From the NCBI RefSeq assembly GCF_021442325.1, contig NZ_CP087879.1, positions 62,001 through 126,000 on the forward strand: a stretch of 64,000 nt of DNA. The letters run 5' to 3'. The notes under the pieces were generated by a model that did not search any database, was not told where the DNA came from, and was given only the letters and a program-made list of their open reading frames with translations. Positions 421 to 47,444 of this stretch are shown here, piece by piece; the stretch's first letter is position 1, and each line of letters starts with the position of its first letter. The stretch is from Agromyces marinus. Lineage in GTDB: Bacteria; Actinomycetota; Actinomycetes; Actinomycetales; Microbacteriaceae. Both the position numbers and the translations under genes were made by a program.

Positions 421-1077
421 TCAGGCGCTGAAGTACGGGCTCGAGGCGTTGTCGAGGATGCGGCGCATGCCGTTCATCCAGTTCGCCTTGAGGGCGACGG
501 ATGCCGCGTGCACGTCGCCGTCGGCGAGGTGGTGGGCGATCTCGGCGTGCTCGGCGGCGACGCGGTCGATCATGACGTCGTCGGGGACGAGGAGCGACTC
601 GTACCGGTGGAACGCGCCGCGGGTGCTCTCGATGGTGTCGAGCAGGCGGCGGTTGGGGCACGCGGAGAGCATGACCGCGTGCCACTCGTCGTCCTTCGTG
701 ATGACGAGCGCGTGCTCGACGACCTCCTGGTCGAACTCCGCCGAGAGGGCGGTGAGGCGCCGCCCGATCTCCCGGAGCTCGTCGAGCGGGCTGAGCTCGA
801 GCGCGAGCGACTCGAGGGCGGCCATGACGGGCGCGAGCTCCTCGAACTCGGTGGCGGAGAGCGGAACGAAGCGGAAGCCCTTGCCGTTCTCGCTGGTGAT
901 CTGGCCCTCGCTCTCGAGCGCGATGAGCGCCTCGCGCAGCGGGGTGCGGCTCACGCCGAGTTCGGAGGCGAGCTGGACCTCGTTGATGCCTTCCCCGGGG
1001 CGCACGCGCCCGGATCGCATGCGTGCGAGGAGTTCCTCGCGGACCTGGGAGCGCAGGTTCCTGCGTTCGATCGCCAT
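421..1077 (-). CDS. GntR-family regulator, FCD (FadR-type) subfamily
   Basis: A 218-residue repressor or activator with an N-terminal winged helix (recognition helix near VSRTPLREALIALE, about residues 43-56) followed by an all-helical FCD effector domain typical of regulators that sense small organic acids or sugar acids. The ATG at 1077 was chosen because GGAGG lies just upstream; an overlapping ATG out of frame is ignored. The gene is divergent from the GH42/gcvPA-like operon, and a perfect inverted repeat lies between them at 1152-1168, so it very probably controls that operon. The effector is unknown; a catabolic intermediate of the operon is the natural guess. Confidence 0.9.
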   Translation of the reverse strand: MAIERRNLRSQVREELLARMRSGRVRPGEGINEVQLASELGVSRTPLREALIALESEGQITSENGKGFRFVPLSATEFEELAPVMAALESLALELSPLDELREIGRRLTALSAEFDQEVVEHALVITKDDEWHAVMLSACPNRRLLDTIESTRGAFHRYESLLVPDDVMIDRVAAEHAEIAHHLADGDVHAASVALKANWMNGMRRILDNASSPYFSA

Positions 1078-1120
1078 CCATCCTCCAGCCGGTCGGTGCC
1101 GACGCCGCAAGCCTATGGGG

Positions 1121-1149
1121 TTGACCCGGGCGTGCCTGCGGCCTAACGT
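1121..1149 (+). promoter_or_regulatory. Predicted promoter of the GH42-gcvPA-like operon
   Basis: TTGACC at 1121-1126 and TAACGT at 1144-1149 are separated by 17 bp, a good sigma-70-type arrangement. The GntR operator begins three bases after the -10 box, so a bound regulator would block transcription start. Prediction from sequence only. Confidence 0.55.
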
Positions 1150-1151
1150 TG

Positions 1152-1168
1152 CTGTATACAAAATACAG
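1152..1168. promoter_or_regulatory. GntR-type operator
   Basis: CTGTAT-N5-ATACAG is a perfect 6-5-6 inverted repeat that also contains the palindrome TGTATACA at 1153-1160, like sites bound by FCD-type GntR proteins. It is AT-rich in a very GC-rich background, lies between the divergent regulator and operon, and directly follows the predicted -10 box. The most likely ligand is the product of the gene at 421-1077. Confidence 0.7.
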
Positions 1169-1212
1169 TGCGCAACGACGCAAGTACAGATCCCCGACGG
1201 AGAGGACCACGT

Positions 1213-3291
1213 GTGACCCACGCGACGCGGCAGATCCGCCTCGACGCGCTCGCCTATGGCGGCGACTACAACCCCGACCAATGGCCCGAGCACGTGTGGC
1301 ATGAGGACGTGCGCCTCATGCAGGAGGCCGGCGTCAACCTCGTGAGCCTGCCCGTGTTCTCCTGGCCGCAGCTCGAGACCTCGCCCGGCGTCTACGACTG
1401 GGCCTGGCTCGACCGCGTCATCGAGGTGCTCTGGGCCGGCGGCATCCGCATCGACCTCGCGACCGCGACCGCGACCCCGCCCGCCTGGCTCGTCCGCAGC
1501 CACCCCGAGATGCTCCCGTGGGACTCCGACGGCCGGCGCCTCGAGTTCGGCTCGCGGCAGGCCTACTGCCCGAGTTCGCCCGTGTGGCGCGAGCACGTCG
1601 CACGCATGGCGCGCGCGATGGCCGAACGCTACGGCGAGCACCCCGCCGTCGTCATGTGGCACATCTCGAACGAGTACGGCGACCATGTCTCGCGGTGCTG
1701 GTGCCCCGAATCGGCGCGGCACTTCCGCCGCTGGCTCGAGGCGCGCCACGGCGACCTCGACGGTCTCAACGAGGCGTGGGGCGTCAACGTCTGGGGCCAG
1801 CGCTACACCGCGTGGGAGCAGATCGAGCCGCCGCGCCGTGCCACCGGCCCGATCAATCCGACCCAACTGCTCGACTTCGAGCGGTTCTCGTCGAATGCGC
1901 TCCTCGAGCTGTTCCGCATCGAGGTCGACGTGCTGCGCGAGATCACGCCCGACCTGCCGGTCACGACGAACTTCATGAGCCTCCTGCGCGACCTCGACTA
2001 CTGGAAGTTCGCCGAGCACGAAGACCTCGTCACGGACGACGCCTACCCGGACCCGGCCGACCCGAACGCCCACATCCCGGCAGCGCTCAACTACGGGCTC
2101 ATGCGCTCCCTCAAGGGCGGTCAGCCGTGGCTGCTGCTCGAACAGGCCGCGAGCGCCGTGAGCTGGCGCGACGTCAACGTGCCCAAGGCACCCGGCCGGA
2201 TGCGCCTGGACAGCCTGCAGGCGATCGCGCACGGCTCCGACGGCGCGATGTTCTTCCAGTGGCGGCAGGCGCAGTACGGGCAGGAGAAGTTCCACTCGGC
2301 GATGCTCGGTCACCGCGGCGAGGCGTCACGGACCTTCCGCGAGACCGCCGCCTTCGGGCGAGAGCTCCAGCGACTGGCTCCCGTGAAGGGCACCCGCGTC
2401 CGCAGCCGGGTCGCACTCGTCGTCGACTGGGACTCCTGGTGGGGATCGAGCGCCGCCGAATCCCTGCCCTCGCAGCGCCTCGGCTGGCTCGGCCAGGCGC
2501 GGGCGTGGCACGCTGCGCTGCACGCACTCGGCCACGCGGTCGACACGGTGCGCGCGACCGGCCCCTTCGACCAGTACGACCTCGTCGTCGTCCCGAACCT
2601 CTACATCGCGGATGCCACGCAGGCCGCCGCGCTCGACGCCTACGCCGCCGCAGGCGGCACCGTCGTCGTCGGCCCGTTCTCGGGCGTCGTCGACGCGACC
2701 GAGAAGGTGCACCCCGGCGGTGCGCCCGGGCCGCTGCGTGAACTCCTCGGCATCGAGATCGACGAGCCGTGGCCCGTGCCCGACGGCGCGGCCGAACAGA
2801 TCGAGCTCGACGGGGAGCGGCACGCCGCACCCGTGTGGACCGAGTGGGTCGAGGCGTCGGCCGAGGCATCCGTCATCGCGACCTATGCGACCGGCGTCCT
2901 CGCCGGCCGCCCCGCCGTCACGCGGCGCGCCCACGGCGCCGGGGCGGCCTGGTACGTGAGCGCGGCGCTCGATGCCGACGGGCTCGTCGCGGTCATGCGC
3001 CACGCACTCGCCGACGCCGACCTGCCCGCACGCGACCGCATCGACCCGCACCTCGAGGCGGTCACCCGTTCCGGCGACGGCACCGACTACACCTTCGTGC
3101 TCAACCACGGCAGCGCCGACGCCACCGTCGACGTGCCCGCCGGGGCGATCGACCTGCTCGGCGGCGCCGAACCCGAGCCCACGACCACGGGCCGTGCCCG
3201 GCTCGTCGTCCCCACCGCCGGGGTCGCCGTCCTGGCGACGCCGACCGCGGCCGAACCGCCCTTCATCACCCTGTCCGAGACCACCGAGTGA
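1213..3291 (+). CDS. Glycoside hydrolase family 42 beta-galactosidase
   Basis: A 692-residue GH42 enzyme predicted to remove terminal beta-galactosyl residues from short, imported galactosides. No signal peptide is seen, so it should be cytoplasmic. The N-terminal TIM barrel begins at GGDYNPDQWPE (16-26). The acid/base is Glu154 in WHISNEYG and the nucleophile is Glu310 in WLLLEQ. The remainder fits the trimerisation and C-terminal beta domains, and the length is normal for the family. GTG at 1213 is preferred over an upstream ATG at 1168 because GGAGAGGA precedes it and the family N-terminus starts there. It stops 8 bases before the next gene and is probably first in a GntR-controlled operon. 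Why a galactosidase sits with GcvP-like genes is unclear. Confidence 0.93.
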   Translation: MTHATRQIRLDALAYGGDYNPDQWPEHVWHEDVRLMQEAGVNLVSLPVFSWPQLETSPGVYDWAWLDRVIEVLWAGGIRIDLATATATPPAWLVRSHPEMLPWDSDGRRLEFGSRQAYCPSSPVWREHVARMARAMAERYGEHPAVVMWHISNEYGDHVSRCWCPESARHFRRWLEARHGDLDGLNEAWGVNVWGQRYTAWEQIEPPRRATGPINPTQLLDFERFSSNALLELFRIEVDVLREITPDLPVTTNFMSLLRDLDYWKFAEHEDLVTDDAYPDPADPNAHIPAALNYGLMRSLKGGQPWLLLEQAASAVSWRDVNVPKAPGRMRLDSLQAIAHGSDGAMFFQWRQAQYGQEKFHSAMLGHRGEASRTFRETAAFGRELQRLAPVKGTRVRSRVALVVDWDSWWGSSAAESLPSQRLGWLGQARAWHAALHALGHAVDTVRATGPFDQYDLVVVPNLYIADATQAAALDAYAAAGGTVVVGPFSGVVDATEKVHPGGAPGPLRELLGIEIDEPWPVPDGAAEQIELDGERHAAPVWTEWVEASAEASVIATYATGVLAGRPAVTRRAHGAGAAWYVSAALDADGLVAVMRHALADADLPARDRIDPHLEAVTRSGDGTDYTFVLNHGSADATVDVPAGAIDLLGGAEPEPTTTGRARLVVPTAGVAVLATPTAAEPPFITLSETTE

Positions 3292-3299
3292 GACGCGCC

Positions 3300-4727
3300 A
3301 TGACCGAACCCTTCGTCCATCCGTACATCCCGAACACCGCGCCCGACGTCCGCGCCGAGATGCTCGCCGCCGTCGGCGCGGCATCCGTCGACGAGTTCTA
3401 CGCCGACGTTCCCGCAGACCTCCGCCTCGGGCGCGCCCTCGACCTGCCCGAGCCGCTCGTCGCCGAGCAGGACCTCGCCCGGCACGTCTCCGGCCTGCTC
3501 GCCAAGAACACCACGACGACCGAGCGCCTGAGCTTCCTCGGCCAGGGCACCTACGCGCACCACGTGCCGGCGGTCGTCGACGAGGTCATCGGCCGCAGCG
3601 AGTTCCTCACCGCGTACGCGGGGGAGCCCTACGAAGACCACGGGCGCTTCCAGGCGCTCTGGCAGTACCAGTCGCTCATGGGTGAACTGCTGTCGATGGA
3701 CGTCGTGAACGTGCCCACCTACGACGGGTTCCAGGCGACCGCGACGGCCCTCGCGATGGCCGGGCGCCTGACCGGCCGACGCCGGGTGCTCGTCGCGAGC
3801 GACGTGCTGCCCGCCAAGCTCTCGAAGGTGCGCGACTTCGTGCGCGTGCACCTCGACCTCGAGTTCGTCGCGCCCGTCGACGGCACAGCGGATGCCGCGG
3901 GCGTCGCCGACCGCCTCGGCGACGACGTCGCGGCCGTCTGGGTCGAGACGCCCAGCCGGACCGGGGCGATCGAGCACCGGCTGCAGCAGCTCGCCGATGC
4001 CGCCCACGAGGTCGGCGCGGTCCTCGTCGTCGGCACCGACCCCGTGGGGTACGGCGTGCTGACCCCGCCCGCCGAGCAGGGCGCCGACATCGTGTGCGGC
4101 GACATCCAGTCGCTCGGGCTGCACCAGTGGTTCGGCGGCGCGCACGCGGGCTTCATCGCGGTGCACGACGACCCGCGCTTCGTGATGGAGATGCCCTCGC
4201 GGCTGTTCGGCCTGGCCACGACCGACGTGCCCGGCGAGGTCGGATTCGGTGACGTCGCCTACGACCGCACCTCGTTCGCCCACCGCGAGGAGGGCAAGGA
4301 ATGGGTCGGTACCGCAGCCGCCCTCTGGGGCATCGCCGCGGGCGTGCACCTCGCGCTCATGGGCCCGCAGGGCATGCGCGAGCTCGGCGAGGTGCTGCTC
4401 GCCCGCACCGCCTACGCGCAGCGCGCGCTCGCCGCCATCCCCGGCATCCGCCTCGCCGACGGCGCCGTGCACCTGCGCGAGTTCGCCGTCGACGTCTCCG
4501 GGGCCGGTCTGACCGCGCCCGGCATCGTCGACCGACTCCGCGCCGACGGCATCGAACCGGGCGTCGCCGCGAGCGAGCACGAACTCGTCGTGTGCGTGAC
4601 CGAGATCACCTCGCAGCACGACATCGATCGACTCGCCACCGCGATCACCACCCTCGTCGCGGCATCCGCCGCCGAGGCCGCAGCCACCCTCGACACCGCA
4701 GCGACCCATGAGGAGCACCGCGCATGA
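3300..4727 (+). CDS. gcvPA: GcvPA-like PLP-fold protein (glycine dehydrogenase subunit 1 homologue), diverged
   Basis: A 475-residue homologue of the N-terminal half of glycine decarboxylase (P-protein), fold-type I. Family features are present: YIPNT (9-13), an FLGQGTYAHHVP segment near residue 80 and MDVVNVPTYDG near 133. Two signature regions differ from what I know of true GcvPA. The usual TPYQPE(I/V)SQG stretch is replaced by YAGEPYEDHG (106-115), and the GEGQ-LG-P segment reads GDIQSLGLHQWFGG (268-281). It overlaps the partner gene by ATGA at 4724-4727, so the two are probably translated together. With no GcvT, GcvH or Lpd nearby, and because actinobacteria usually carry a fused GcvP, this is more likely a paralogous PLP decarboxylase or lyase of unknown substrate than housekeeping glycine cleavage. 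Confidence 0.85.
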   Translation: MTEPFVHPYIPNTAPDVRAEMLAAVGAASVDEFYADVPADLRLGRALDLPEPLVAEQDLARHVSGLLAKNTTTTERLSFLGQGTYAHHVPAVVDEVIGRSEFLTAYAGEPYEDHGRFQALWQYQSLMGELLSMDVVNVPTYDGFQATATALAMAGRLTGRRRVLVASDVLPAKLSKVRDFVRVHLDLEFVAPVDGTADAAGVADRLGDDVAAVWVETPSRTGAIEHRLQQLADAAHEVGAVLVVGTDPVGYGVLTPPAEQGADIVCGDIQSLGLHQWFGGAHAGFIAVHDDPRFVMEMPSRLFGLATTDVPGEVGFGDVAYDRTSFAHREEGKEWVGTAAALWGIAAGVHLALMGPQGMRELGEVLLARTAYAQRALAAIPGIRLADGAVHLREFAVDVSGAGLTAPGIVDRLRADGIEPGVAASEHELVVCVTEITSQHDIDRLATAITTLVAASAAEAAATLDTAATHEEHRA

Positions 4728-6298
4728 GCCTGCCCATCGCCCCCAAGCCCGCACACCGCCGCTTCCACCAGGCCCGCTGGGACGAACCGGTCATCTTCGA
4801 ACTGTCGACGCCGGGCGAGCGCGGGGTGCTCGTCACCCGCGTCGAGCCCGGGGTCCGCGACGCCGTCGGCGACGTCGTCGCCGCGCTGCCCGAGGGCCTC
4901 GCCCGGAGCACCCCGCCCGCACTGCCCGAGATGGCGCAGATGCGCGTGCTCAAGCACTACCTGCGCCTCTCGCAGGAGAACCTCGGCGCCGACCTCAACG
5001 TCGACGTCGGCCAGGGCACGTGCACCATGAAGTACGCCCCCAAGGTCAACGAGCAGCTCATCGCCACCCCGAAGCTGTCGGCCATGCACCCGCTGCAGGA
5101 CGACGCCGACGCGCAGGGCGTGCTCGAGATCATCTGGCGCACCGAACGCATGCTCGCCGAGGTCTCCGGCATGGACGAGGTGTCGCTGCACACCCAGGGC
5201 GGGTCGGCCGCGATCTGGGCGAACATCGCGATGATCCGGGCCTTCCACGAGGCGAACGACGAGGGCGACCAGCGCCGCGAGGTCATCACGACGATCTTCA
5301 GCCACCCGTCGAACGCCGCCGCCGCGAAGGCCGCCGGCTACGACGTCATCACGCTCCACCCGGACGCCGACGGCTACCCCGACCTCGAGGCGCTCAAGCG
5401 CGCACTGTCGCCGCGCACCGCGGCGATCATGGTCACCAACCCCGAGGACACCGGCATCTACAACCCGGCGATCAAGGAGTGGGTGGATGCCGCGCACGGC
5501 GTCGGCGCCCTCGCCTCGTACGACCAGGCCAACGCCAACGGCATCCTCGGCATCACCCGGGCCCGCGACGCGGGCTTCGACGTGTGCCACTTCAACGTGC
5601 ACAAGACCTTCGGCACGCCGCACGGTTCGGGCGGACCGGGCACGGGTGCGAATGCGGTCAGCGCCGCGCTCGCGCCGTTCCTGCCCGGGCCGCGCGTCGT
5701 GCGCGACGGCGTCCGGTACGACGTCGTCGAGGCCGGGCCGCAGTCGATCGGCGCGATCGGGCCGTTCCACGGCGTCGTGCCGAACATCGTGCGCGCCTAC
5801 GCGTGGATCATGGCGCTCGGCGCCGATGGCCTGCGCGCCGTCGCCGAGACCGCGGTGCTCAACAACAACTACCTCATGAAGCGCATCCTCGAGATCCCCG
5901 GCGCGTCCGCTCCATACGCGACCGGCCGCCGCCGCATCGAACAGGTGCGGTACTCGTGGCAGGAGCTGTTCGAGGAGACCGGCATCAGCTCGGAGGAGAT
6001 CGGCATCCGTGCGAGCGACTTCGGCATGCACTACTGGACGAGCCACCACCCCTACGTCGTGCCGCAGCCGTTCACGCTCGAGCCGACCGAGTCGTACTCG
6101 AAGAGCGAACTCGACGAGTACGCCGACGTCCTCGCCGAGGTCGCCCGCGAAGCCCGCGAGACGCCCGAGGTCGTCCGCACGGCGCCGCACAACCAGACCG
6201 TGCACCACACCCACCACGACGACCTCGACGACCCCGAGCGCTGGGCGGTCACGTGGCGCGCGTACCGCCGCAAGTACCCGGACGCCGTCGGGGCCTGA
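4724..6298 (+). CDS. gcvPB: GcvPB-like PLP-binding subunit, diverged
   Basis: A 524-residue homologue of the C-terminal, PLP-carrying half of glycine decarboxylase. The Schiff-base lysine is Lys294 in HFNVHKTFGTPHGSGGPG, which is well conserved. Other signature regions are altered: the SGAQGE-type segment reads TQGGSAAIWAN (157-167), the GTNPAS-type segment reads HPSNAAAA (194-201), and the cofactor-contacting DGANLNA reads DQANANG (267-273). The C-terminus is rich in His (HHTHHDD). It is coupled to GcvPA by a 4-base overlap and followed one base later by the NAD-kinase-like gene. The heterodimer should bind PLP, but the changed substrate pocket argues against free glycine plus lipoyl-GcvH as the reaction. 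The reaction is unknown. Confidence 0.85.
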   Translation: MSLPIAPKPAHRRFHQARWDEPVIFELSTPGERGVLVTRVEPGVRDAVGDVVAALPEGLARSTPPALPEMAQMRVLKHYLRLSQENLGADLNVDVGQGTCTMKYAPKVNEQLIATPKLSAMHPLQDDADAQGVLEIIWRTERMLAEVSGMDEVSLHTQGGSAAIWANIAMIRAFHEANDEGDQRREVITTIFSHPSNAAAAKAAGYDVITLHPDADGYPDLEALKRALSPRTAAIMVTNPEDTGIYNPAIKEWVDAAHGVGALASYDQANANGILGITRARDAGFDVCHFNVHKTFGTPHGSGGPGTGANAVSAALAPFLPGPRVVRDGVRYDVVEAGPQSIGAIGPFHGVVPNIVRAYAWIMALGADGLRAVAETAVLNNNYLMKRILEIPGASAPYATGRRRIEQVRYSWQELFEETGISSEEIGIRASDFGMHYWTSHHPYVVPQPFTLEPTESYSKSELDEYADVLAEVAREARETPEVVRTAPHNQTVHHTHHDDLDDPERWAVTWRAYRRKYPDAVGA

Positions 6299-6299
6299 G

Positions 6300-7436
6300 G
6301 TGATCGGGCTCGTCGTCAACCCCGTCGCCGGTGTCGGCGGACCCGCGGGGCTCGCCGGGAGCGACGGCGAGGAGGTGCAGCGCCGCGCGGGCGAGCGCGG
6401 CGCGCACCCCCGTGCCGGCGAGCGGGCCGCCGCGGCCCTCTCGGTTCTCGCCGCCGCGAGACCGGAGGAACTCGTCGTCACCGTCGCCGGTCCGATGGGT
6501 GAGGACGCGGTCCGCGACGCGGGGCTCCGCCCCGTCGTCGTGTGGCATCCGCCCGCCGCGACGACGGCGACCGACACGACGGACGCCGCACGGGCCCTCG
6601 TCGACGCCGGCGCCGACCTCCTGCTGTTCGCGGGCGGCGACGGCACCGCGCGCGACGTGGCATCCGGTCTGCCGGAGGGCGTCGCCGCGCTCGGCATCCC
6701 GGCGGGCGTGAAGATGTACTCGCCGGTGTTCGCCGTCGGGCCCCGCGCCGCGGGATCGCTCGCGGCGGCGTGGCGGGGCGAAGGGAGCCTCCCCGTGGTC
6801 GATCGCGAGGTGCTCGACGTCGACGAGTCGCAGCTGCGTCGCGCGCGCGTCGAACCCCGCCTGTACGGAACCCTCCGCGTGCCCTATCGTGCCGGCCGCA
6901 CGCAGGCGCGCAAGGCGGCCACGCCGGCCGACGAACGCGCGGCCGTGCGGCTCGCGGCCAGGGGAGCGGCGGCGCGCCTGCGGCCCGGTATCCGCTACCT
7001 GCTCGGACCCGGCGGCACGATGGCGGAGCTCGCTCGCGAACTCGGCGTGCCGAAGACGCCGCTCGGCGTCGACGTCGTGCTCGACGGGCGCGTCGTCGCG
7101 GCCGCCGCGTCGGAGCGCGACCTGCTCGAGCAGGTCGCGCAGGGGCCCTCGCAGGCCGTCGTCTCCATCATCGGAGGCCAGGGATTCCTGCTCGGCCGAG
7201 GCAACCAGCAGCTCTCCGCGCGCGTCATCGACGCGCTCGGCGACGAGCCCGTCATGGTCGTCGCGCCCGAGCAGAAGCTCATCGACCTCGGCGGGCGGCC
7301 GCTGCTCGTCGACACCGGCGACCCTGTCGTCGACACCCGGCTCGCCGGATTCGCCAGGGTCGTCACCGGCCCCGGCACCACCAGCATCTACCCGGTCCAC
7401 GCACCGGAGAACGAAGGAGCGCTCCATGCGACTTGA
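6300..7436 (+). CDS. ATP-NAD kinase family protein (AcoX-like)
   Basis: A 378-residue member of the AcoX-type branch of the NAD kinase/diacylglycerol kinase superfamily. The N-terminus reads IGLVVNPVAGVGG, typical of this branch, and the nucleotide-binding motif GGDGTARD is at about residue 112. GTG at 6300 is chosen because it matches the family start exactly and lies one base after the gcvPB stop. A phosphorylated cofactor or a phosphorylated pathway intermediate are both possible products. It is longer than housekeeping NAD kinases, and this branch is often found in catabolic operons. The 3' end overlaps the next gene by 11 bases. Confidence 0.85.
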   Translation: MIGLVVNPVAGVGGPAGLAGSDGEEVQRRAGERGAHPRAGERAAAALSVLAAARPEELVVTVAGPMGEDAVRDAGLRPVVVWHPPAATTATDTTDAARALVDAGADLLLFAGGDGTARDVASGLPEGVAALGIPAGVKMYSPVFAVGPRAAGSLAAAWRGEGSLPVVDREVLDVDESQLRRARVEPRLYGTLRVPYRAGRTQARKAATPADERAAVRLAARGAAARLRPGIRYLLGPGGTMAELARELGVPKTPLGVDVVLDGRVVAAAASERDLLEQVAQGPSQAVVSIIGGQGFLLGRGNQQLSARVIDALGDEPVMVVAPEQKLIDLGGRPLLVDTGDPVVDTRLAGFARVVTGPGTTSIYPVHAPENEGALHAT

Positions 7437-8184
7437 GAACAAGCAGGCCATCGTGACCGGCGGCGCGGGCGGCATCGGCCGCGCGACCGCGAAGGCGCTC
7501 GCCGAGCAGGGCGCCGCAGTGGCCGTCGTCGACCTCGACGGCGACGCGGCCGAGGCGGTCGCGGCCGAGATCCGCGACGCCGGCGGCACCGCCATCGCGA
7601 TCCGAGCGGATGTCTCGAGCGAAGCCGACATCGAACGCGTCGTCCGCACGACCGTCGCCGAGTTCGGCGGCGTGAACGTCGTCTTCAACAACGCCGGCAT
7701 CATCCGCCGCACGACCGTGCTCGAGACGAGCGTCGAGGAGTGGGACCGCGTGTTCGGCGTGAACGTGCGCTCGATCTTCCTCATGTGCAAGCACGTCGTG
7801 CCGATCATGGCCGCCGCGGGCGGCGGGTCGATCGTGAACACCGGTTCCGGGTGGGGCCTCAAGGGCGGCGGGCAGGCGATCTCGTACTGCGCGTCGAAGG
7901 GCGCCGTCGTCAACATGACGCGCGCGCTCGCGATCGACCACGGCCCGCAGGGCATCCGGGTCAACTCGGTCAACCCCGGCGACGTGAACACCGGCATGCT
8001 GCGCGACGAGGCGAGCCAGCTCGGCCAGGACGCGAACGCCTTCCTCGCCGAGGCCGCCGACCGCCCGCTGCGGCGCATGGGCGAACCGCGCGAGATCGCC
8101 TCGGCGGTGGTGTGGCTCGCGAGCGACGAGTCGAGCTACGTGACCGGATCGGCGCTCGTCGTGGACGGCGGCGGGATCGCGTAG
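7426..8184 (+). CDS. Short-chain dehydrogenase/reductase, NAD-type
   Basis: A 252-residue classical SDR. The Rossmann motif is TGGAGGIG (11-18). Asp36 at the end of beta-2 (VVDLD) predicts NAD rather than NADP. NNAG follows, and the catalytic Tyr-Lys pair is in SYCASK. The start at 7426 has GGAG nine bases upstream and overlaps the kinase-like gene by 11 bases. It is the last gene of the operon, before a strong hairpin at 8191-8227. It probably oxidises an alcohol formed from the GcvPA/B-like reaction product, or a sugar hydroxyl. Since it looks NAD-dependent, the neighbouring NAD-kinase-like protein is unlikely to be there to supply its cofactor. Confidence 0.9.
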   Translation: MRLENKQAIVTGGAGGIGRATAKALAEQGAAVAVVDLDGDAAEAVAAEIRDAGGTAIAIRADVSSEADIERVVRTTVAEFGGVNVVFNNAGIIRRTTVLETSVEEWDRVFGVNVRSIFLMCKHVVPIMAAAGGGSIVNTGSGWGLKGGGQAISYCASKGAVVNMTRALAIDHGPQGIRVNSVNPGDVNTGMLRDEASQLGQDANAFLAEAADRPLRRMGEPREIASAVVWLASDESSYVTGSALVVDGGGIA

Positions 8185-8190
8185 TACGGG

Positions 8191-8227
8191 GCGCGCGCCC
8201 GGCCGGTCGGCCCGGCCGGGCGCGCGC
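8191..8227. terminator. Strong hairpin ending the GcvPA/B-like operon
   Basis: A perfect 16-bp GC stem (8191-8206 with 8212-8227) and a 5-base loop, 6 bases after the SDR stop. No T-run follows, as is common for GC-rich actinobacterial terminators. It separates convergent genes, so it may work in both directions. Confidence 0.7.
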
Positions 8228-8257
8228 GGGCCCCGCGTGGCGCGGGCGGGCCGACGC

Positions 8258-10305: not shown

Positions 10306-10341
10306 GGCGAGCTCCCCAGGCGCGGCGAGCCCCTCAGGCGC
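10306..10341. repeat. Two tandem copies of an 18-bp unit between convergent genes
   Basis: GGCGAGCTCCCCAGGCGC (10306-10323) is followed directly by GGCGAGCCCCTCAGGCGC (10324-10341), differing at two positions. The second copy contains the stop codon of the LigD-type gene, so the last codons of that gene lie in the duplication. Confidence 0.7.
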
Positions 10342-11572
10342 GGCCGGCCCACGGGTCGTAGTCGACCAGGAGCGGTTCCTGGGCCGGGCGCGATGCCTCG
10401 GGCACGTGCTGGAGGTTCACGCGCACCCGGTACCAGAGCGAACTCGAGCCGCGCATGCCGTCGATGAGCACGTCAGCGGGCGTGAGGTGGGCGAGGACCT
10501 CCGGGTGCGCGAGCTTCCACCGCTCGAGCGCGTCGAGCGCCTCGGGCCTGGTCTCGGTACGGGCGACTTCGATGAGCGGCATCCGCGACACCCGCCGGCC
10601 CGCTCCGGAGCCGCCGGAGCCTCCCGCGCCGCCGCGCGGCGCCTTCTCGGCGGGCCCGAGCTCGTCGGCGAGGCGGAGCAGCCCGTCGAGCGAGCCGGCT
10701 GCGTCGTCGATGCCGGCGTGCGCGTCACCGCGCTCGCCGAAGCGGTCGAGCACCGTCGCGACGGTGAACTCCGCCGGCCGCCGGGTGCGCACCTCGTCCC
10801 ACGACAGCGGGGTCGACACGCGCGCGTCCGGTAGGGCGCGCACCGAATAGGCGGATGCCACGGTGCGGTCCTTCGCGTTCTGGTTGAAGTCGACGAAGAC
10901 GCTCTCGCCCCGTTCCTCCTTCCACCATCGGGCCGACGCGAGTCCCGGCGCCCGTCGCTCGACCTCGCGCGCGAGCGCCTCGGCGGCCAGACGCACCTGC
11001 GGGTACTCCCATCGCGGCTCGATGCGGACGAGCAGGTGGATGCCGCGCGAGCCCGACGTCTTCGGCCAGCCGGTGAGCCCGTGGTCCCCGAGCACGTCGC
11101 GTGCGACCATCGCGACGTCGACGATCTGCGACCAGTCGACGCCGGGCATCGGGTCGAGGTCGACTCGGAGCTCGTCGGGGTGGTCGAGGTCCTCGGCGCG
11201 CACGGGGTGCGGGTTGAGGTCGAGGCATCCGAGGTTCGCCACCCAGGCCAGGCCCGCGGCGTTGCGCACCACGGCCTCCTCGGCGGACGTGCCTCGCGCG
11301 TAATGCAGGGTCGCGGTGTCGACGAATGCGGGCCGGTTCTCCGGGACCCGCTTCTGGAAGAACGGCTCGGCGTCGATGCCCTTGACGAAGCGCTTGAGCA
11401 CCATGGGCCGCCCTCCGGCGCCGCGCAGGGCACCGTCGGCGACGGCGACGTAGTACCGCACGAGGTCGAGCTTGGTCAGCCCGGGTTCGGGGAACACCAC
11501 CCGATCGGGGTGGCTGACGCGGACGTCGTGCCCTTCGATGTCGAGGACCACCGCGTCGTCGGAGCGAGCCAT
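10334..11572 (-). CDS. Stand-alone LigD polymerase (primase-type) domain protein
   Basis: A 412-residue archaeo-eukaryotic-primase-type polymerase of the LigD family used in non-homologous end joining for gap filling and primer-independent nucleotide addition. Metal-binding Asp residues are in the DLDP motif (about 138-141) after NPHPVRAEDLDHPDEL, with a further conserved GIHLLVRI strand (about 177-184) and VFVDFNQNAKDRT. There is no ligase or phosphoesterase domain, and no ku gene in the window, so it is either a component of a multi-gene NHEJ set encoded elsewhere or an independent repair polymerase. A Gly/Ser-rich linker around residues 320-335 precedes a C-terminal helical extension. It forms a short leftward run with the membrane-protein gene upstream (10-base gap). 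Confidence 0.9.
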   Translation of the reverse strand: MARSDDAVVLDIEGHDVRVSHPDRVVFPEPGLTKLDLVRYYVAVADGALRGAGGRPMVLKRFVKGIDAEPFFQKRVPENRPAFVDTATLHYARGTSAEEAVVRNAAGLAWVANLGCLDLNPHPVRAEDLDHPDELRVDLDPMPGVDWSQIVDVAMVARDVLGDHGLTGWPKTSGSRGIHLLVRIEPRWEYPQVRLAAEALAREVERRAPGLASARWWKEERGESVFVDFNQNAKDRTVASAYSVRALPDARVSTPLSWDEVRTRRPAEFTVATVLDRFGERGDAHAGIDDAAGSLDGLLRLADELGPAEKAPRGGAGGSGGSGAGRRVSRMPLIEVARTETRPEALDALERWKLAHPEVLAHLTPADVLIDGMRGSSSLWYRVRVNLQHVPEASRPAQEPLLVDYDPWAGRA

Positions 11573-13859: not shown

Positions 13860-14513
13860 TCACGCACCTGCCCCCGGCGGCGCCGGGAGGATCTCGTCGA
13901 GCAACTGCTCGAGATGCGCCCGGATCTCGTCGCGGACGCGGCGGATGCCGTCGAGGTCGAGTTCGGCCGGGTCGTCGAGGTGCCAGTCGAGGTATCGCAT
14001 GCCGGGGTAGATCGGGCAGGCCTCCCCGCAGCCCATCGTGATCACCGCGTCGGCGGCGCGGACGACGTCATCCGTGAGGGGCTTCGGGAACTCCTCCGTC
14101 AGGTCGATCCCGTCCGCGGCCATGACCTGCACGACCTCGGGGTGGATCGAGTCTCCCGGCTCGGAGCCGGCCGAGCGGACGTGCACCCGGTCGCCGGCGA
14201 GCTTCCGCAGCATGCCGGCGGCCATCTGCGAGCGGCCGGAGTTCTGCACGCACACGAACAGCACCTCGGGGACGGCCTTCGGGATCGCCCCCTTGGACTG
14301 GGCCAGTGCGAGCAGCCGGTCCTGTGCGAACCGGTAGGCGAGGCTCGGCACGTGTGCGGGCACCTTCGCCGTGCGCATCAGGGCGGTGTACGACTCGAAC
14401 ACCACGCGTTCGACCGTCTCCTCGTTCACGATGCCCTCGTACCGGGTCGCGAGGCGCTCGGCGCTGCGGTGGAGCACCGCGCGCGCGTCGTTCAGCCCGA
14501 GTGCGCGGGTCAT
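13860..14513 (-). CDS. Arsenate reductase/LMW-phosphatase family with N-terminal three-helix domain
   Basis: A 217-residue protein. Residues 1-~75 form the helical bundle seen in some actinobacterial arsenate reductases (RYEGIVNEETVERVVFESYTAL, given here in parts: VNEETVERV, FESYTALM). Residues 83-217 are the low-molecular-weight phosphatase-like ArsC fold, with the P-loop CVQNSGRS (Cys88, Arg94) and a second cysteine cluster GCGEACPIYPG. It overlaps the upstream arsC by ATGA at 14510-14513 and so is translationally coupled to it. It lacks the ArsR domain of its paralogue at 15017-15901. Function: reduction of arsenate to arsenite, using thioredoxin or mycothiol/mycoredoxin; which donor cannot be read from sequence. 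Confidence 0.85.
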   Translation of the reverse strand: MTRALGLNDARAVLHRSAERLATRYEGIVNEETVERVVFESYTALMRTAKVPAHVPSLAYRFAQDRLLALAQSKGAIPKAVPEVLFVCVQNSGRSQMAAGMLRKLAGDRVHVRSAGSEPGDSIHPEVVQVMAADGIDLTEEFPKPLTDDVVRAADAVITMGCGEACPIYPGMRYLDWHLDDPAELDLDGIRRVRDEIRAHLEQLLDEILPAPPGAGA

Positions 14514-14926
14514 GCGCTCGTGTCCTGCGGGAGCAGTTCGGCGAGCAGCGTCTCGACACGACCGCGGATCTCGTCGCGGATCGGGCGGACCGCTTCGATG
14601 CCCTGGCCCGCCGGGTCGTCGAGCTTCCAGTCCTCGTAGCGCTTGCCGGGGAAGATCGGGCAGGCGTCGCCGCAGCCCATCGTGATCACGACGTCGGACT
14701 CGCGGACCGCCTCGGTCGTCAGCACCTTCGGCACGTTGTCGGCGATGTCGATGCCCTGCTCGGCCATCGCCTCGACCGCGACCGGGTTGATCTCGTCCTT
14801 CGGCGCGGAGCCCGCGGAGAGCACCTCGATGCGGTCGCGCCCGAGTTCGCGGAGGAAGCCGGCGGCCATCTGCGAGCGGCCGGCGTTGTGCACGCACACG
14901 AACAGGACGGTGGGCTTCTCGGGCAT
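14510..14926 (-). CDS. arsC: Arsenate reductase (LMW-PTP-like ArsC)
   Basis: A 138-residue minimal ArsC with P-loop CVHNAGRS (Cys11, Arg17) and a downstream GCGDACPIFPG cluster carrying two further cysteines, as in disulfide-cascade arsenate reductases of this fold. It has a good ribosome-binding site (AAAGGAACC) and is the first gene behind an ArsR-type operator at 14962-14979. No arsenite exporter (acr3/arsB) is found in the window, although reduction without efflux would not confer resistance, so a pump is expected elsewhere. Confidence 0.92.
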   Translation of the reverse strand: MPEKPTVLFVCVHNAGRSQMAAGFLRELGRDRIEVLSAGSAPKDEINPVAVEAMAEQGIDIADNVPKVLTTEAVRESDVVITMGCGDACPIFPGKRYEDWKLDDPAGQGIEAVRPIRDEIRGRVETLLAELLPQDTSA

Positions 14927-14959
14927 CGGCGGTTCCTTTCCTCGGGATGGAGCACTGCA

Positions 14960-14979
14960 ATCATAGATCGTGGTCTATG
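14960..14979 (-). promoter_or_regulatory. ArsR operator and -10 box of arsC operon
   Basis: CATAGA-N6-TCTATG (14962-14979) is a perfect inverted repeat whose left arm overlaps a minus-strand -10 (TATGAT, 14960-14965). The same repeat occurs at the ArsR-ArsC fusion gene start (15899-15916). The match in sequence, spacing and part of the centre (TCG) shows that both belong to one regulator. Confidence 0.8.
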
Positions 14980-15016
14980 CATCAAGCGAGCCGAGGCGGG
15001 CGGGTTCAGCTGAAGT

Positions 15017-15901
15017 TCACCTGATCCCGGCCAGGCTCGGGATCAGCTCGCGGACGCGCCCGTCGATGTCGTCGCGGATGCGGCGCACCTCCTCGAGCGG
15101 CAGGCCCACGGGGTCGTCGAGCTCCCAGTCGAGGTAGCGGGTGCCCGGATGGATCGGGCAGGCGTCCCCGCAGCCCATCGTGACGACCACGTCGGCCGCA
15201 CGGACCACGTCGTCGGTCAACGGCTTCGGGAACTCGCCGCCGAGGGACACCCCGATCTCCTCCAGGGCGGCCGCGATCGCCGGCGCCACCGAGGCCGCCG
15301 GCTCGGAGCCGGCCGTTCGCACGCGCACCCGGTCGCCGACGAGGCGCCGCAGCAGTGCAGCGGCCATCTGCGATCGACCGGCGTTCTGCACGCACACGAA
15401 CAGCACTTCCGGCGCTCCAGCGCGGTCCTGCTCGCGCGCGGCGACCGCGGCGAGGCGCTGCGCCGAGAACTCCGCCGTCCGCGAGGCCAACCGCGTGCCG
15501 CCACTTGCGCGGGCGAGCATCTCCCGGCTCTCGTCCACGAAACGCTCGACGGTCTCGCGGCCGAAGGTGCCCGCGAACCGGAGGGCGAGGTCGTCGACCA
15601 CGCGCGCGAACACGGCGGGCCCCGGCTCCGAGGCGCCGGGCGCGCCGAGGATCTCGAGCACGCGATCCGTCTGCTCCGGGGCGACCGAGTACCAGACCCG
15701 CCGGCCTTCGGGTCGACGTTCGAGGACCCCCGCGTCGACGAGCACGCGCGCATGATGCGTGACGGTCGGCTGCCGCAGCCCGAGCTGGCCGGCCAGCCGG
15801 GTCACCGTCGACCGGCCCTCGGGCTCGCGGAGGATCAGCCCGAGGATCCGGGCGCGGGTCGGCTCGGAGACCGTGGCCGAGAACTGCTGCGCCGAACCCA
15901 T
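15017..15901 (-). CDS. ArsR repressor fused to arsenate reductase (ArsR-ArsC)
   Basis: A 294-residue three-part protein. Residues 1-~85 are an ArsR-type winged helix (LAGQLGLRQPTVTHHARVLVD, recognition helix about 43-54). Residues ~95-160 are the same helical bundle as in the paralogue at 13860. Residues 164-294 are the ArsC fold with P-loop CVQNAGRS (Cys170, Arg176) and GCGDACPIHPG. Sensing or repression and arsenate reduction are thus in one chain. The ATG (complement of 15899-15901) lies inside the operator at 15899-15916, and a -10-like TAGACT ends 7 bases before it, so the mRNA is probably leaderless and autoregulated. A classical As(III) cysteine pair (CxC) is not visible in the recognition helix, so metal sensing may differ or use other residues. 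Confidence 0.85.
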   Translation of the reverse strand: MGSAQQFSATVSEPTRARILGLILREPEGRSTVTRLAGQLGLRQPTVTHHARVLVDAGVLERRPEGRRVWYSVAPEQTDRVLEILGAPGASEPGPAVFARVVDDLALRFAGTFGRETVERFVDESREMLARASGGTRLASRTAEFSAQRLAAVAAREQDRAGAPEVLFVCVQNAGRSQMAAALLRRLVGDRVRVRTAGSEPAASVAPAIAAALEEIGVSLGGEFPKPLTDDVVRAADVVVTMGCGDACPIHPGTRYLDWELDDPVGLPLEEVRRIRDDIDGRVRELIPSLAGIR

Positions 15902-43575: not shown

Positions 43576-45363
43576 TCAGTCGCGGGGCGCTGCCTCTCGC
43601 CGCACGTTCCGCGTCTGCGAAGCGTCGAGGGCGTCGGCCCGGGACCGCGCGAGGCCGCCGTCGGGTTCGCCCGCGGCGAGCAGGCTCGAGGTCGCGACGA
43701 CCGAGAGGTGGTTGATCGATCCGCGGACGGTGAAGTTCGCCGTGCCGTCCTCGCCGATCACGCCCTCGATCAGCGGTGACGTGCGGTCGAAGATCGTGAA
43801 CCCGGTGCCGGGCGGGCCCGTGACGACGAGCGTGCGCCATCCGTTCGCCCCGGGCTCGCCGGCATCGAAGGCCAGACCGGGTGCGCCCGGTTCCGCAGGC
43901 TCGACGACCGGGTCCGCCGGCCCGCTGCCCTCGCCGCGATCGGGCTCCGGCACCGAGGGGGTCGAGGTGGGTGCTTCGGTCTGCGCATCCTCGGCGCCCC
44001 CGCCCGTCTGCCCGTCGTCCGAATCCGGCGTGGTCACCGGCCCGTCCGGTGTCGCCGGCGGCGCCGGCGCTTCGGCATCGGGGCTCGGCGCCGGGTCGGG
44101 GGTGCCGGGAACCTCGGTGGTCCGCACCTCCGGCAGGGACGAACCGGGCGCAGCGGCCATGACGTCGGTCGAGGCCGATCCCGCCGCGTCCCGGGCATCG
44201 AGGCCGCTCGGCCCGCCGGCGACCACGGCGACGACGAGCGCGGCCGCGGCCGATGCGGCGAGCGTCGACAGGCCGGTGATGAGGAACCCGCGCGGCACGC
44301 GCCGCGCCCCGCCCGAGAGGGCGGCGGCGGGAAGAGGCGCCGGGGCTCGGCCCGCGGCAGCCGGGGCCGCTCCGGCGGATGCCGCGGCTGCCGGAGCCAC
44401 GGGAACCGGCGCTGCCGGCAAACCCGGGAAGGCCGGGGAGCCCGAGGTCGGGCCGCCGTCGGCGCCGATCACCGTGGCCGCGCCGATGGCGGGGATCGCA
44501 GCGGACAACGGGATCGCAGCCAGGGGCGGCCGCGAGGCACCGGTCCGCGTGGCCTCGAGGAACGCGATGCCCGACGCCCCGCCGAGCACGAGCAGCGGGA
44601 GCAGGCCGACCAGTCGGTGAGCGAGGTCCGGGACCGGGAGCGCCGCCGCGCGGCATCCGGCGCAGGCATCGACATGCGTGCGGATGCGACGGGCGATCGG
44701 ACGCCCCGCGGTCGGCGCCGCCCGCAGGGACGACAGCACCTCGGCGCAGTCCGAACCCGGAGGCGATGCGGCCAGACGCTGACGCACCCATGCGTCCCGG
44801 AGGCCCGAACGCGCGCCGCCCGCGAGGCGGTCGGCCTCGTCGGTCGTGCACCCGAACGCGGCGCCGAGCTCGGTCGGGGGGAGCCCGTCGATCTCGGCCA
44901 TCCAGAGCGCCTCCTGGGAGGAGACCGGCAGCGAGGCGTACGCCGTCGCGATCGCGCCGCCGTCGCGAAGCCCGTTCGGCAGGTCGTCGCGGTACCAGTC
45001 CTCCGGCGCGAGCAGCGGCGGCCGTGCACCCGGGTTCGCGCCGCCCCGGCCGTCGGCGGCGGCCGCCGCCTCGCGCACGGCTGCGAGCACGTGCGGGCGG
45101 AGCGCGCCGACCCGCGCGTTCGGTTCGTGCACCCACGACATGAGCATCGTCTCGGCCGCCCGGACGACGACCTCGACCTCTGCGGAGCCCGGAGTCGCGC
45201 CCGCCGCGGCGACCGCGGCCGATTCGTGCCGGTGCCACAGCCTCGCTGCGGCGAAGCCGTCGCCCGCCCGCGCGGAGACGATGAGGGCGGCGTCGCTGGG
45301 GGTCTCGACGACGGGCAGTGCGAGCGGCGAGGTGGCCGGATGGCCGCCGTGCGCGTCGGGCAC
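43576..45363 (-). CDS. Membrane-anchored sigma factor/anti-sigma (zinc finger) fusion
   Basis: A 595-residue protein. Residues ~20-110 resemble a degenerate ECF sigma region 2. Residues ~140-200 resemble region 4 (LPVSSQEALWMAEIDGLPPTELGAAFG). A ZAS-type zinc finger follows with Cys206, His230, Cys234 and Cys237 (HVDACAGC). A membrane segment (~251-270) and a second (RGFLITGLSTLAASAAAALVVAV, in parts: FLITGLSTLAASA, AALVVAVVAGG) follow, then a long Pro/Ala/Asp/Thr linker and a folded C-terminal domain. Sigma and anti-sigma in one chain on the membrane is unusual. Start GTG 45363 is favoured (GAGGAG 5 bases upstream). It could be a membrane-tethered sigma released by proteolysis. Confidence 0.75.
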   Translation of the reverse strand: MPDAHGGHPATSPLALPVVETPSDAALIVSARAGDGFAAARLWHRHESAAVAAAGATPGSAEVEVVVRAAETMLMSWVHEPNARVGALRPHVLAAVREAAAAADGRGGANPGARPPLLAPEDWYRDDLPNGLRDGGAIATAYASLPVSSQEALWMAEIDGLPPTELGAAFGCTTDEADRLAGGARSGLRDAWVRQRLAASPPGSDCAEVLSSLRAAPTAGRPIARRIRTHVDACAGCRAAALPVPDLAHRLVGLLPLLVLGGASGIAFLEATRTGASRPPLAAIPLSAAIPAIGAATVIGADGGPTSGSPAFPGLPAAPVPVAPAAAASAGAAPAAAGRAPAPLPAAALSGGARRVPRGFLITGLSTLAASAAAALVVAVVAGGPSGLDARDAAGSASTDVMAAAPGSSLPEVRTTEVPGTPDPAPSPDAEAPAPPATPDGPVTTPDSDDGQTGGGAEDAQTEAPTSTPSVPEPDRGEGSGPADPVVEPAEPGAPGLAFDAGEPGANGWRTLVVTGPPGTGFTIFDRTSPLIEGVIGEDGTANFTVRGSINHLSVVATSSLLAAGEPDGGLARSRADALDASQTRNVRREAAPRD

Positions 45364-45581
45364 GTGCACTCCTCTCGTCGCGCCGGCGTCTCGGTGCGCG
45401 CGGCCTGCGGCGCGGCGCGCCGGGGAACTCGGGTCGCCTGGGCGGCGGGCGGATGCCCGGACCGGTCGTCCGTCTGGGGAGGGCGCCGATCGGGGGTGGG
45501 CACCTCGCCGATGTCGCCATCAGCGGTCGGCCCGAGTCTACGACCTGGACGGGGTCCCGGCGCAAGGGGCCCGACGGTCCT

Positions 45582-46499
45582 TCAACTGCCGGGGTGGCCG
45601 GGTTCCCGCGGGGTTCGCAGCAGGGCGCCTTCCTGCCGGATGGTCGCCGCGGCGATCCCCATGGCCTCCGCGAGGACGCTCGCCCAGGTCTCGGCCGTGG
45701 CCGGCATGCCCCCGGCGGCGATGCGGTGCACGACTCCCGCGAGGGTCGCGTCGCCCGCGCCCATCGTGTCGACGATCGGCCCGGGCAACTCCACGACGCC
45801 GGAGTGCACCTCGAGTGCGGCCGTGTGCACGCTCGCACCGTGCCGTCCCGCGGTGGCGAGGACGGCGGGGCAGCCGCGCTGCCCGAGCACCCGCACGAAC
45901 TGCTCGAGCGATGTGCCGGCGAGCAGGTCGGCGTCGTCGTCTCCGACCTTGACGAGCACGGACGTCGCGGCGGCGCGCAGCAGGTTCGCCAGGAAGCGGT
46001 CGCGATCGTGCAGCATGCCCGCGCGCGGGTTCGCATCGATCACGAGCCGACGTCGCGGATCGCGCACCGCCCCGAGGAGCGCCTCGACCTGTTCGTCGTC
46101 GTCGAACGGGTAGCAGCTCACGACCACGAGGTCTGCGGCGTCGAGTGCGTCGCGGGTGGTCCCGTCGAAGGCCAGGCGGCGCGCCCGTGCGGCTGCGTTG
46201 AACTCGTACCGGGGCTCTCCGCCCGAGGTGCGGATCGAGACGGCTCGCGAGGAGCCGAGCTCGGACGGACTCGCCACGAGCGCGACGTCGTAGTCGATGA
46301 GGAACGATCGGATGCGTCGCCCCGGCTCGTCGTCGCCGATCATGGCAACGAGCGTCGCGTCGGTGCCGAGCAGCGCGAGCCCGGTCGCCACGTTCAGCGC
46401 GGCGCCGCCGACGAATTCGCGCGTGCCGCGCGGGTCCCGGAGTTCGTCGATGAGGGCGTCGCCGACGACGGCGACCCGAGGAACGTGTGGTCGCGTCAT
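45582..46499 (-). CDS. PfkB-family carbohydrate kinase
   Basis: A 305-residue ribokinase-fold kinase with GGAALNVATGLALLG (~31-45) and VDTMGAGDATLAGVV holding the catalytic Asp. The N-terminus VAVVGDALIDELRD resembles ribokinase/fructokinase rather than the hexose-phosphate branch. The 218 bases upstream of the sigma-fusion start hold no gene; its own start ATG overlaps no promoter I can define. Substrate unknown. Confidence 0.87.
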   Translation of the reverse strand: MTRPHVPRVAVVGDALIDELRDPRGTREFVGGAALNVATGLALLGTDATLVAMIGDDEPGRRIRSFLIDYDVALVASPSELGSSRAVSIRTSGGEPRYEFNAAARARRLAFDGTTRDALDAADLVVVSCYPFDDDEQVEALLGAVRDPRRRLVIDANPRAGMLHDRDRFLANLLRAAATSVLVKVGDDDADLLAGTSLEQFVRVLGQRGCPAVLATAGRHGASVHTAALEVHSGVVELPGPIVDTMGAGDATLAGVVHRIAAGGMPATAETWASVLAEAMGIAAATIRQEGALLRTPREPGHPGS

Positions 46500-46633
46500 C
46501 CGCTCGGTTCTCCCAGCTTCCGGGCTGCAGCGGCCCGGAGCCAGCGTGGCACGGGGGCGGGCCGGGCGTCCAGCGGCGCGGGGGCGCCGCCGGAACGCTG
46601 TACGGTGTGTCGAGTCCCCGAACGGAAGGCCCC

Positions 46634-47353: not shown

Positions 47354-47394
47354 CCGAGACGGCGGGCGCCGAGGCGCGCACCGCCCGGAGACGA

Positions 47395-47426
47395 CGAGGC
47401 GCCGACCCCGAAGGGCCGGCGCCTCG
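47395..47426. terminator. Bidirectional hairpin between tetR and the M6 protease gene
   Basis: CGAGGCGCCG (47395-47404) pairs perfectly with CGGCGCCTCG (47417-47426) across a 12-base loop, midway between the stops of two convergent genes. Confidence 0.65.
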
Positions 47427-47444
47427 CCGCTGCGGCAGGTCGGG

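What the first reader, a model, noticed from the sequence alone, without database searches (positions are those of the whole stretch)
1075..8227. GntR-controlled operon built on diverged, split glycine-decarboxylase-like proteins
The operon is GH42 - GcvPA-like - GcvPB-like - AcoX/NAD-kinase-like - NAD-type SDR, with its own promoter, GntR operator and terminator. There is no gcvT, gcvH or lpd. GcvPB keeps the PLP-lysine motif HFNVHKTFGTPHG, but several motifs I know from true glycine decarboxylase are replaced: TPYQPE-SQG becomes YAGEPYEDHG, SGAQGE becomes TQGGSAAIWAN, GTNPAS becomes HPSNAAAA, DGANLNA becomes DQANANG. This suggests a paralogous PLP system acting on a different amino compound, perhaps one released from, or attached to, a galactoside. 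That last part is inference.
Basis: partly seen in the sequence, partly recalled or inferred. Interest (0 to 1): 0.75.

Follow-up and report, generated by a model that had tools for sequence, protein, structure and literature searches.

The report
Glycoside regulon with repurposed glycine-cleavage enzyme
An Agromyces-like bacterium and many relatives carry, likely under one gene switch, genes for a sugar importer, two sugar-cutting enzymes and a strongly altered relative of the glycine-splitting enzyme; the set is predicted to take up a galactose-bearing compound and likely breaks down its nitrogen-containing core rather than glycine.

Summary
The operon is real: GH42, GcvPA-like (PA), GcvPB-like (PB), an NAD/diacylglycerol-kinase-fold protein (KX) and an SDR, behind a divergent GntR/FCD gene. 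It is not the genome's glycine decarboxylase: a fused gcvP with gcvT and gcvH lies elsewhere. PB falls in a 100/100-supported branch outside nine canonical P-proteins; 28 PB and 27 PA columns invariant in those nine are mostly replaced, while the PLP lysine and core stay. PA-PB-KX-SDR recurs in Actinomycetota, Chloroflexota, Calditrichota and archaea. None of 87 loci shows gcvT, gcvH or lpd nearby (6 of 6 control loci do).

In actinomycetes the module usually travels with GH42, a sugar ABC importer and a YgjK-like GH63 glycosidase. One palindrome marks both operons: genome-wide it lies before this operon, before the importer-GH63 operon, and at one further degenerate place; in relatives 22 of 22 sites lie at these two promoters. 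I read this as a regulon for an alpha-glucosyl-beta-galactoside of an amino compound, with a kinase/PLP step on the aglycone. Collagen-type glucosyl-galactosyl-hydroxylysine is my best specific guess; inferred, untested.

Against: both proteins pass the NCBIfam GcvPA/GcvPB cut-offs, and gcvH exists in 37 of 39 carrier genomes, so H-protein independence is not shown.

The parts
421..1077 (-). GntR/FCD-family regulator, divergent from the operon
   Evidence: PF00392 60 bits and PF07729 46 bits, both over cut-off; a relative lies near PB in 55 of 80 loci by clustering, 50 of 80 by tblastn
1152..1168 (.). operator palindrome CTGTAT-N5-ATACAG between GntR and GH42
   Evidence: at 1 mismatch or fewer only 3 places in the 3.2 Mb genome: here, before the ABC/GH63 operon, and one degenerate third; reversed-pattern control 0; 22 of 22 sites in 19 carrier genomes searched lie at these two promoters
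1213..3291 (+). GH42-family beta-galactosidase
   Evidence: three GH42 Pfam domains over cut-off; closest solved chain 9ta3, E 4.7e-168
3300..4727 (+). PA: diverged GcvPA-like subunit
   Evidence: NF001696 441 bits, cut-off 364; 27 columns invariant in 9 of 9 canonical P-proteins are kept by under half of 31 clade members
4724..6298 (+). PB: diverged GcvPB-like PLP subunit, Schiff-base lysine K294 (by motif)
   Evidence: NF003346 555 bits, cut-off 441; own branch 100/100 in the tree; 28 canonical columns kept by under half of 32 clade members, H194, D267, H293 and K294 kept in all
6300..7436 (+). KX: kinase of the NAD-kinase/diacylglycerol-kinase fold
7426..8184 (+). SDR oxidoreductase
   Evidence: PF13561 226 bits; about 55-66% identical to the best SDR in most Chloroflexota and archaeal modules
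8187..8235 (+). G+C-rich hairpin after the SDR, possible transcript end, no T tract
   Evidence: -50.2 kcal/mol, z -1.65; no consensus terminator found there

Best explanation
Two operons that share one rare operator palindrome encode a sugar ABC importer, a GH63-family and a GH42-family glycosidase, a kinase-fold protein, an SDR and a strongly diverged GcvPA/GcvPB pair, and are predicted to import a disaccharide glycoside, cut off its sugars and likely break down the released amino compound with the P-protein-like PLP enzyme rather than cleave glycine. Shown: the shared operator is found almost nowhere else in the genome; the genes travel together across families; PA/PB form their own branch, keep the PLP lysine and core, and have lost the canonical pocket motifs. 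Inferred: the GntR protein would bind the palindrome; GH63 would first remove an alpha-linked sugar (glucose by analogy with YgjK) and GH42 the beta-galactose. KX would phosphorylate a hydroxyl next to the amino group, and PA/PB would bind that amine on PLP and eliminate phosphate or cleave the neighbouring bond, releasing ammonia and a carbonyl compound for the SDR. This copies the known kinase/phospho-lyase logic for hydroxylysine and ethanolamine (recalled). The best specific guess is Glc-alpha-1,2-Gal-beta-O-hydroxylysine, the disaccharide unit of collagen.
Confidence: 0.45

Rival explanations
1. PA/PB are a working glycine decarboxylase subunit pair that borrows GcvH, GcvT and Lpd from elsewhere in the genome, and the operon burns glycine released together with a galactoside.
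For: NCBIfam equivalog cut-offs passed; PLP lysine and core kept; gcvH present in 37 of 39 carrier genomes.
Against: Own branch; the TPYQPE, EKATSNICT, SAHGTNP and DGAN motifs replaced; gcvT, gcvH and fused gcvP already present together elsewhere; no gcvT/gcvH/lpd in 87 loci.
Confidence: 0.1
2. PA/PB still pass a carbanion to a lipoyl arm but act on another amino acid or amino ketone; KX plays the unexplained part that AcoX plays beside the lipoyl-dependent acetoin dehydrogenase, and the SDR makes the ketone.
For: An NAD-kinase-family protein beside a P-protein-like enzyme; gcvH in most carriers; the SDR scores 231 bits with meso-2,3-butanediol dehydrogenase, below that model's cut-off of 270.
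Against: A block invariant or nearly so in canonical PA (EKATSNICT type) is replaced as a whole; no gcvH in 87 loci; the acetoin parallel is recalled, not tested.
Confidence: 0.2
3. The pathway oxidises the sugar: the SDR oxidises galactose or the glycoside, KX makes NADP, and PA/PB act as an aminotransferase-like enzyme on the keto sugar.
For: The SDR passes a glucose-1-dehydrogenase subfamily cut-off, 260 against 215 bits; KX is in the NAD-kinase family.
Against: The module occurs without GH42 in 29 of 80 loci, Chloroflexota and archaea among them, and on Gemmobacter and Rhodococcus plasmids beside APC permeases, an amine oxidase and acyl-CoA or AMP-binding synthetases, which points to an amine rather than a sugar.
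Confidence: 0.1
4. Same regulon, different glycoside (this overlaps with the best explanation and differs only in the substrate): GH63 acts as a glycerate-type or other alpha-glycosidase and the aglycone is another amino alcohol, for example from glycolipids or an actinomycete metabolite.
For: GH63 barrel closest to mannosylglycerate hydrolase, with glucosylglycerate hydrolase near; wide host range with no evident animal link.
Against: GH42 beside GH63 in 45 of 80 loci implies a beta-galactoside core, which glycerate glycosides lack (recalled).
Confidence: 0.3

Closest known systems
Split P-protein GcvPA/GcvPB of the glycine cleavage system (Thermus 1wyt)
   Same: two overlapping subunit genes, PLP lysine motif and core, near full-length similarity
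   Different: own clade, replaced motifs, partners KX and SDR instead of T, H and L
Escherichia coli YgjK, GH63 alpha-glucosidase
   Same: same two-domain build over about 510 residues
   Different: about 22% identity; specificity not measured; the intracellular-type copies are mostly about 510-615 residues against about 760
Protein-glucosylgalactosylhydroxylysine glucosidase, EC 3.2.1.107
   Same: would act on the same sugar unit if the substrate guess is right
   Different: GH65, animal enzyme
Hydroxylysine kinase with phosphohydroxylysine phospho-lyase of animals
   Same: kinase plus PLP-enzyme logic on an amino alcohol (recalled)
   Different: other kinase and PLP families (recalled); no sequence relation tested
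AcoX of acetoin operons
   Different: not compared here

Membership tests
GcvPA/GcvPB glycine decarboxylase | family model score over the curated cut-off | tested here: met
   441 against 364 and 555 against 441 bits
GcvPA/GcvPB glycine decarboxylase | PLP lysine and PLP-binding core | tested here: met
   H194, D267, H293, K294 invariant in 32 clade and 9 canonical rows; their roles recalled from fold-type I enzymes
GcvPA/GcvPB glycine decarboxylase | conserved canonical motifs TPYQPE, EKATSNICT, SAHGTNP, DGAN | tested here: not met
   28 PB and 27 PA columns invariant in 9 of 9 canonical rows are kept by under half of the clade
GcvPA/GcvPB glycine decarboxylase | falls inside the canonical clade | tested here: not met
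   separate branch 100/100, 43 rows; the program warns of long canonical branches
GcvPA/GcvPB glycine decarboxylase | gcvT/gcvH/lpd in the same locus | tested here: not met
   no tblastn hit at 1e-5 in 87 loci with 7 queries; 6 of 6 control loci hit
GcvPA/GcvPB glycine decarboxylase | glycine decarboxylation with lipoyl-H | not testable with these tools
   needs enzyme assay; gcvH exists in 37 of 39 carrier genomes
GH42 | catalytic, trimerisation and C-terminal domains | tested here: met
   PF02449, PF08532 and PF08533 over cut-off
GH63 (partner outside the window) | MGH1-like (alpha/alpha)6 barrel | tested here: met
GH63 (partner outside the window) | cleaves Glc-alpha-1,2-Gal | not testable with these tools
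   only a PDB title for YgjK
NAD kinase family | PF01513/PF20143 with GGDG motif | tested here: met
NAD kinase family | phosphorylates NAD | tested here: inconclusive
AcoX | orthology to AcoX of acetoin operons | not tested
   no AcoX reference was compared
GntR/FCD regulators | winged helix plus FCD domain | tested here: met

The most novel reading that the evidence does not exclude
This is a dedicated bacterial pathway for the collagen sugar unit: Glc-alpha-1,2-Gal-beta-O-hydroxylysine is imported whole, stripped by GH63 and GH42, and the freed hydroxylysine is phosphorylated by KX and broken by a repurposed glycine-decarboxylase pair acting as a lipoyl-free amino-alcohol-phosphate lyase, a new reaction for the P-protein fold that in other phyla serves other amino alcohols.
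Probability: 0.18. Interest if true: 0.85.

Novelty: new variant of a known kind. Interest (0 to 1): 0.62.

Why it matters
Members of this clade are named glycine dehydrogenase in public records, so genome-scale models may count a glycine sink that is not there. If the clade has another reaction, the P-protein fold has a second chemistry with its own partners. The tight gene set (two promoters, nine shared genes) gives an unusually bounded search space for the substrate. If the collagen guess holds, it would answer how bacteria recycle glycosylated hydroxylysine.

Tried and rejected
Printed work on this gene set: ten paper searches listed nothing that I could recognise as it; two returned no paper. 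This covers only the held open-licence library. I saw search listings, and passages of four papers (PMC8537180, PMC7259800, PMC9990993, PMC7263609), no whole text.

Loss of H-protein from carrier genomes was tested as proof of H independence and rejected: 37 of 39 have gcvH (one of the 37, that of L060, only weakly at 22 bits); the two without are metagenome assemblies (L056, L072). A sphingosine-kinase/lyase reading of KX plus PA/PB was considered because KX hits DAGK_cat; I set it aside because a sugar importer and GH63 do not suit a lipid. Hydroxyproline glycosides of plants were considered; no arabinobiosidase is among the 17 PDB sequence hits of GH63, and I recognised no hydroxyproline genes. 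The neighbours in Chloroflexota, alphaproteobacteria, Rhodococcus and L157 (where used, 51, 52, 108, 109) gave amine and carboxylate catabolism of several kinds but no single substrate. The structure of PB was not predicted; both jobs went to GH63 and KX. My first gene caller missed PB in 22 loci that hold it; a seed-trained one replaced it but still missed KX in some loci, which tblastn corrected from 67 to 74 of 80. One search used a wrong, antisense fused GcvP frame and was discarded. For the residue comparison and tree I used 24 of the 80 genome loci and 7 plasmid loci, chosen for spread. The gcvT/gcvH/lpd search had no positive control; one search added one. The absence of any family from the fold lists is not taken as exclusion.

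Full report
WHAT IS THERE. The window lies at 62001-126000 of one 3.2 Mb contig; the named close protein relatives are mostly Agromyces and Microbacterium. The operon runs GH42 (1213-3291), PA (3300-4727), PB (4724-6298), KX (6300-7436), SDR (7426-8184), with a GntR/FCD gene (421-1077) on the other strand. PA and PB overlap by four bases, and by my gene calls the same overlap is seen in 71 of 80 related loci.

NOT THE GENOME'S GLYCINE DECARBOXYLASE. A PF02347 search of the own genome finds a fused GcvP in an open frame of 990 codons near 2.134 Mb besides PA/PB; gcvH and gcvT lie beside it at 2.136-2.138 Mb.

CLADE AND RESIDUES. I aligned 32 PB relatives that come from this type of locus (the window, 7 plasmid loci, 24 of the 80 genome loci), 9 canonical P-proteins and 2 orphan pairs. 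Of the nine, five have annotated gcvT and gcvH beside them, one a gcvT fragment, two lie in unannotated records and one is the own fused GcvP. The 32 form one side of a branch with 100/100 support and length 1.45; the program warns of long branches, above all the fused GcvP. In PB, 28 columns are invariant in the nine and kept by under half of the clade; in PA, 27 (31 clade rows). H194, D267, H293 and K294 of PB are invariant in clade and canonical rows; their roles in PLP binding are recalled. In the window TPYQPE loses one residue and reads AGEPYE; REQHIRREKATSNICT of the fused GcvP corresponds to RTSFAHREEGKEWVGT; SAHGTNP to FSHPSNA; DGAN to DQAN (Q in 26 of 32 clade rows, H in 4). Which of these touch glycine or the lipoyl arm I could not compute; a docking study predicts that the H-protein sits at a conserved surface around the tunnel mouth (PMC7259800, passages). 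Against this reading, NCBIfam's GcvPA and GcvPB equivalog models both accept the pair.

THE MODULE TRAVELS. They include Actinomycetota, Chloroflexota, Calditrichota and archaea (Bathyarchaeota, Brockarchaeota, Thermoplasmatota). PA is directly upstream in 80 of 80. KX is found in 74 of 80 by tblastn with 24 queries; three of the six misses have contigs ending within 1.1 kb of PB, while L078, L087 and L095 truly lack it within about 10 kb downstream. By clustering, an SDR is in 68, GntR in 55, GH42 in 51, GH63 in 48 and a solute-binding protein in 48 of 80; by tblastn GH42 52, GntR 50, SDR 70. GH42 and GH63 are together in 45; GH42 without GH63 in six, GH63 without GH42 in three. Contig ends make these lower bounds. 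I opened seven of the eight plasmid hits at 43-48% identity: all seven have PA-PB; six have KX directly before PA, and in Natronosalvus a KX relative lies elsewhere on the plasmid. Tblastn with T and H queries from three species and one lpd query found no gcvT, gcvH or lpd in 87 loci, while the same queries hit all six canonical control loci. The 80 are the best-scoring loci, not a random sample.

CO-OCCURRENCE WITHOUT SELECTION. Among 296 genomes drawn evenly from the class, 8 carry clade-type PB (E at most 1e-150) and 5 carry the GH63 of L024 type (E at most 1e-60). All 5 are among the 8, on the same contig in each case; none is among the other 288. The own genome is one of the five. Three PB carriers lack a GH63 hit: G316 and G385 (small genomes; the G385 contig ends inside PB) and G361, where a 30%-identical GH63 stretch follows GH42 but falls below the limit. 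An Agromyces survey shows patchy spread: 11 of 36 same-genus genomes have a clade-type PB.

ONE SWITCH, TWO OPERONS. The palindrome CTGTAT-N5-ATACAG sits between GntR and GH42. In the own genome at one mismatch or fewer it occurs at three places: here (63152), at 43893-43909 just before the importer gene (predicted start 43919, perhaps later), and at 437882 with a different core, probably chance; the reversed-pattern control gives none. That second operon encodes a solute-binding protein, two permeases and GH63 (43919-48891), then a second importer. In this genome a stretch with a transposase-like gene separates the two operons; in several other Agromyces loci they are adjacent. In 18 of 20 related loci checked a site with at most two mismatches lies near these genes (none in L079 and L098). 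In 19 carrier genomes a sharper pattern gives 22 sites in 16 genomes: 15 at GntR/GH42 and 7 at the importer, none elsewhere; three genomes have none. So the regulon appears complete with importer, GH63, GH42, PA, PB, KX and SDR. Binding of the GntR protein is inferred.

LIMITS. No function was measured. H-protein use is open because gcvH occurs in 37 of 39 carrier genomes tested. The substrate guess rests on family analogies. Gene calls in unannotated loci come from my own scripts, not from curated annotation.

Noticed in passing
own genome 48951-62400 (L118:6452-19901): Between the importer/GH63 operon and the GntR gene lie a second sugar importer directly after GH63 (for its binding protein), an ABC-type export set, several small secreted-looking proteins and a gene that looks like an IS-type transposase (read from sequence only): the gene set has been split in this genome.
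   Followed up: partly
window 13860-15901: Three open frames that look like low-molecular-weight phosphatase/arsenate-reductase proteins, one of them with an ArsR-like N-terminal part; read from sequence only.
   Followed up: no
window 10334-11572: Open frame that looks like a LigD-type polymerase domain protein; read from sequence only.
   Followed up: no
L126:2134-4961 and L120:3565-6458: GcvPA/GcvPB pairs without gcvT/gcvH annotated beside them in Natrinema and Deinococcus plasmids; they group with canonical rows, not with this clade.
   Followed up: partly
L078:11703-13646: A molybdopterin oxidoreductase stands between PB and the SDR in a locus where KX is missing.
   Followed up: no
L129:7818-9894: In Peptoclostridium acidaminophilum a KX-family kinase gene overlaps an aminotransferase class I/II gene, another kinase-PLP pairing.
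   Followed up: no
L156: A 1.4 Mb genome of the class carries PA-PB at 62-66% identity on a contig that ends inside PB, so the module may persist in a reduced genome.
   Followed up: no
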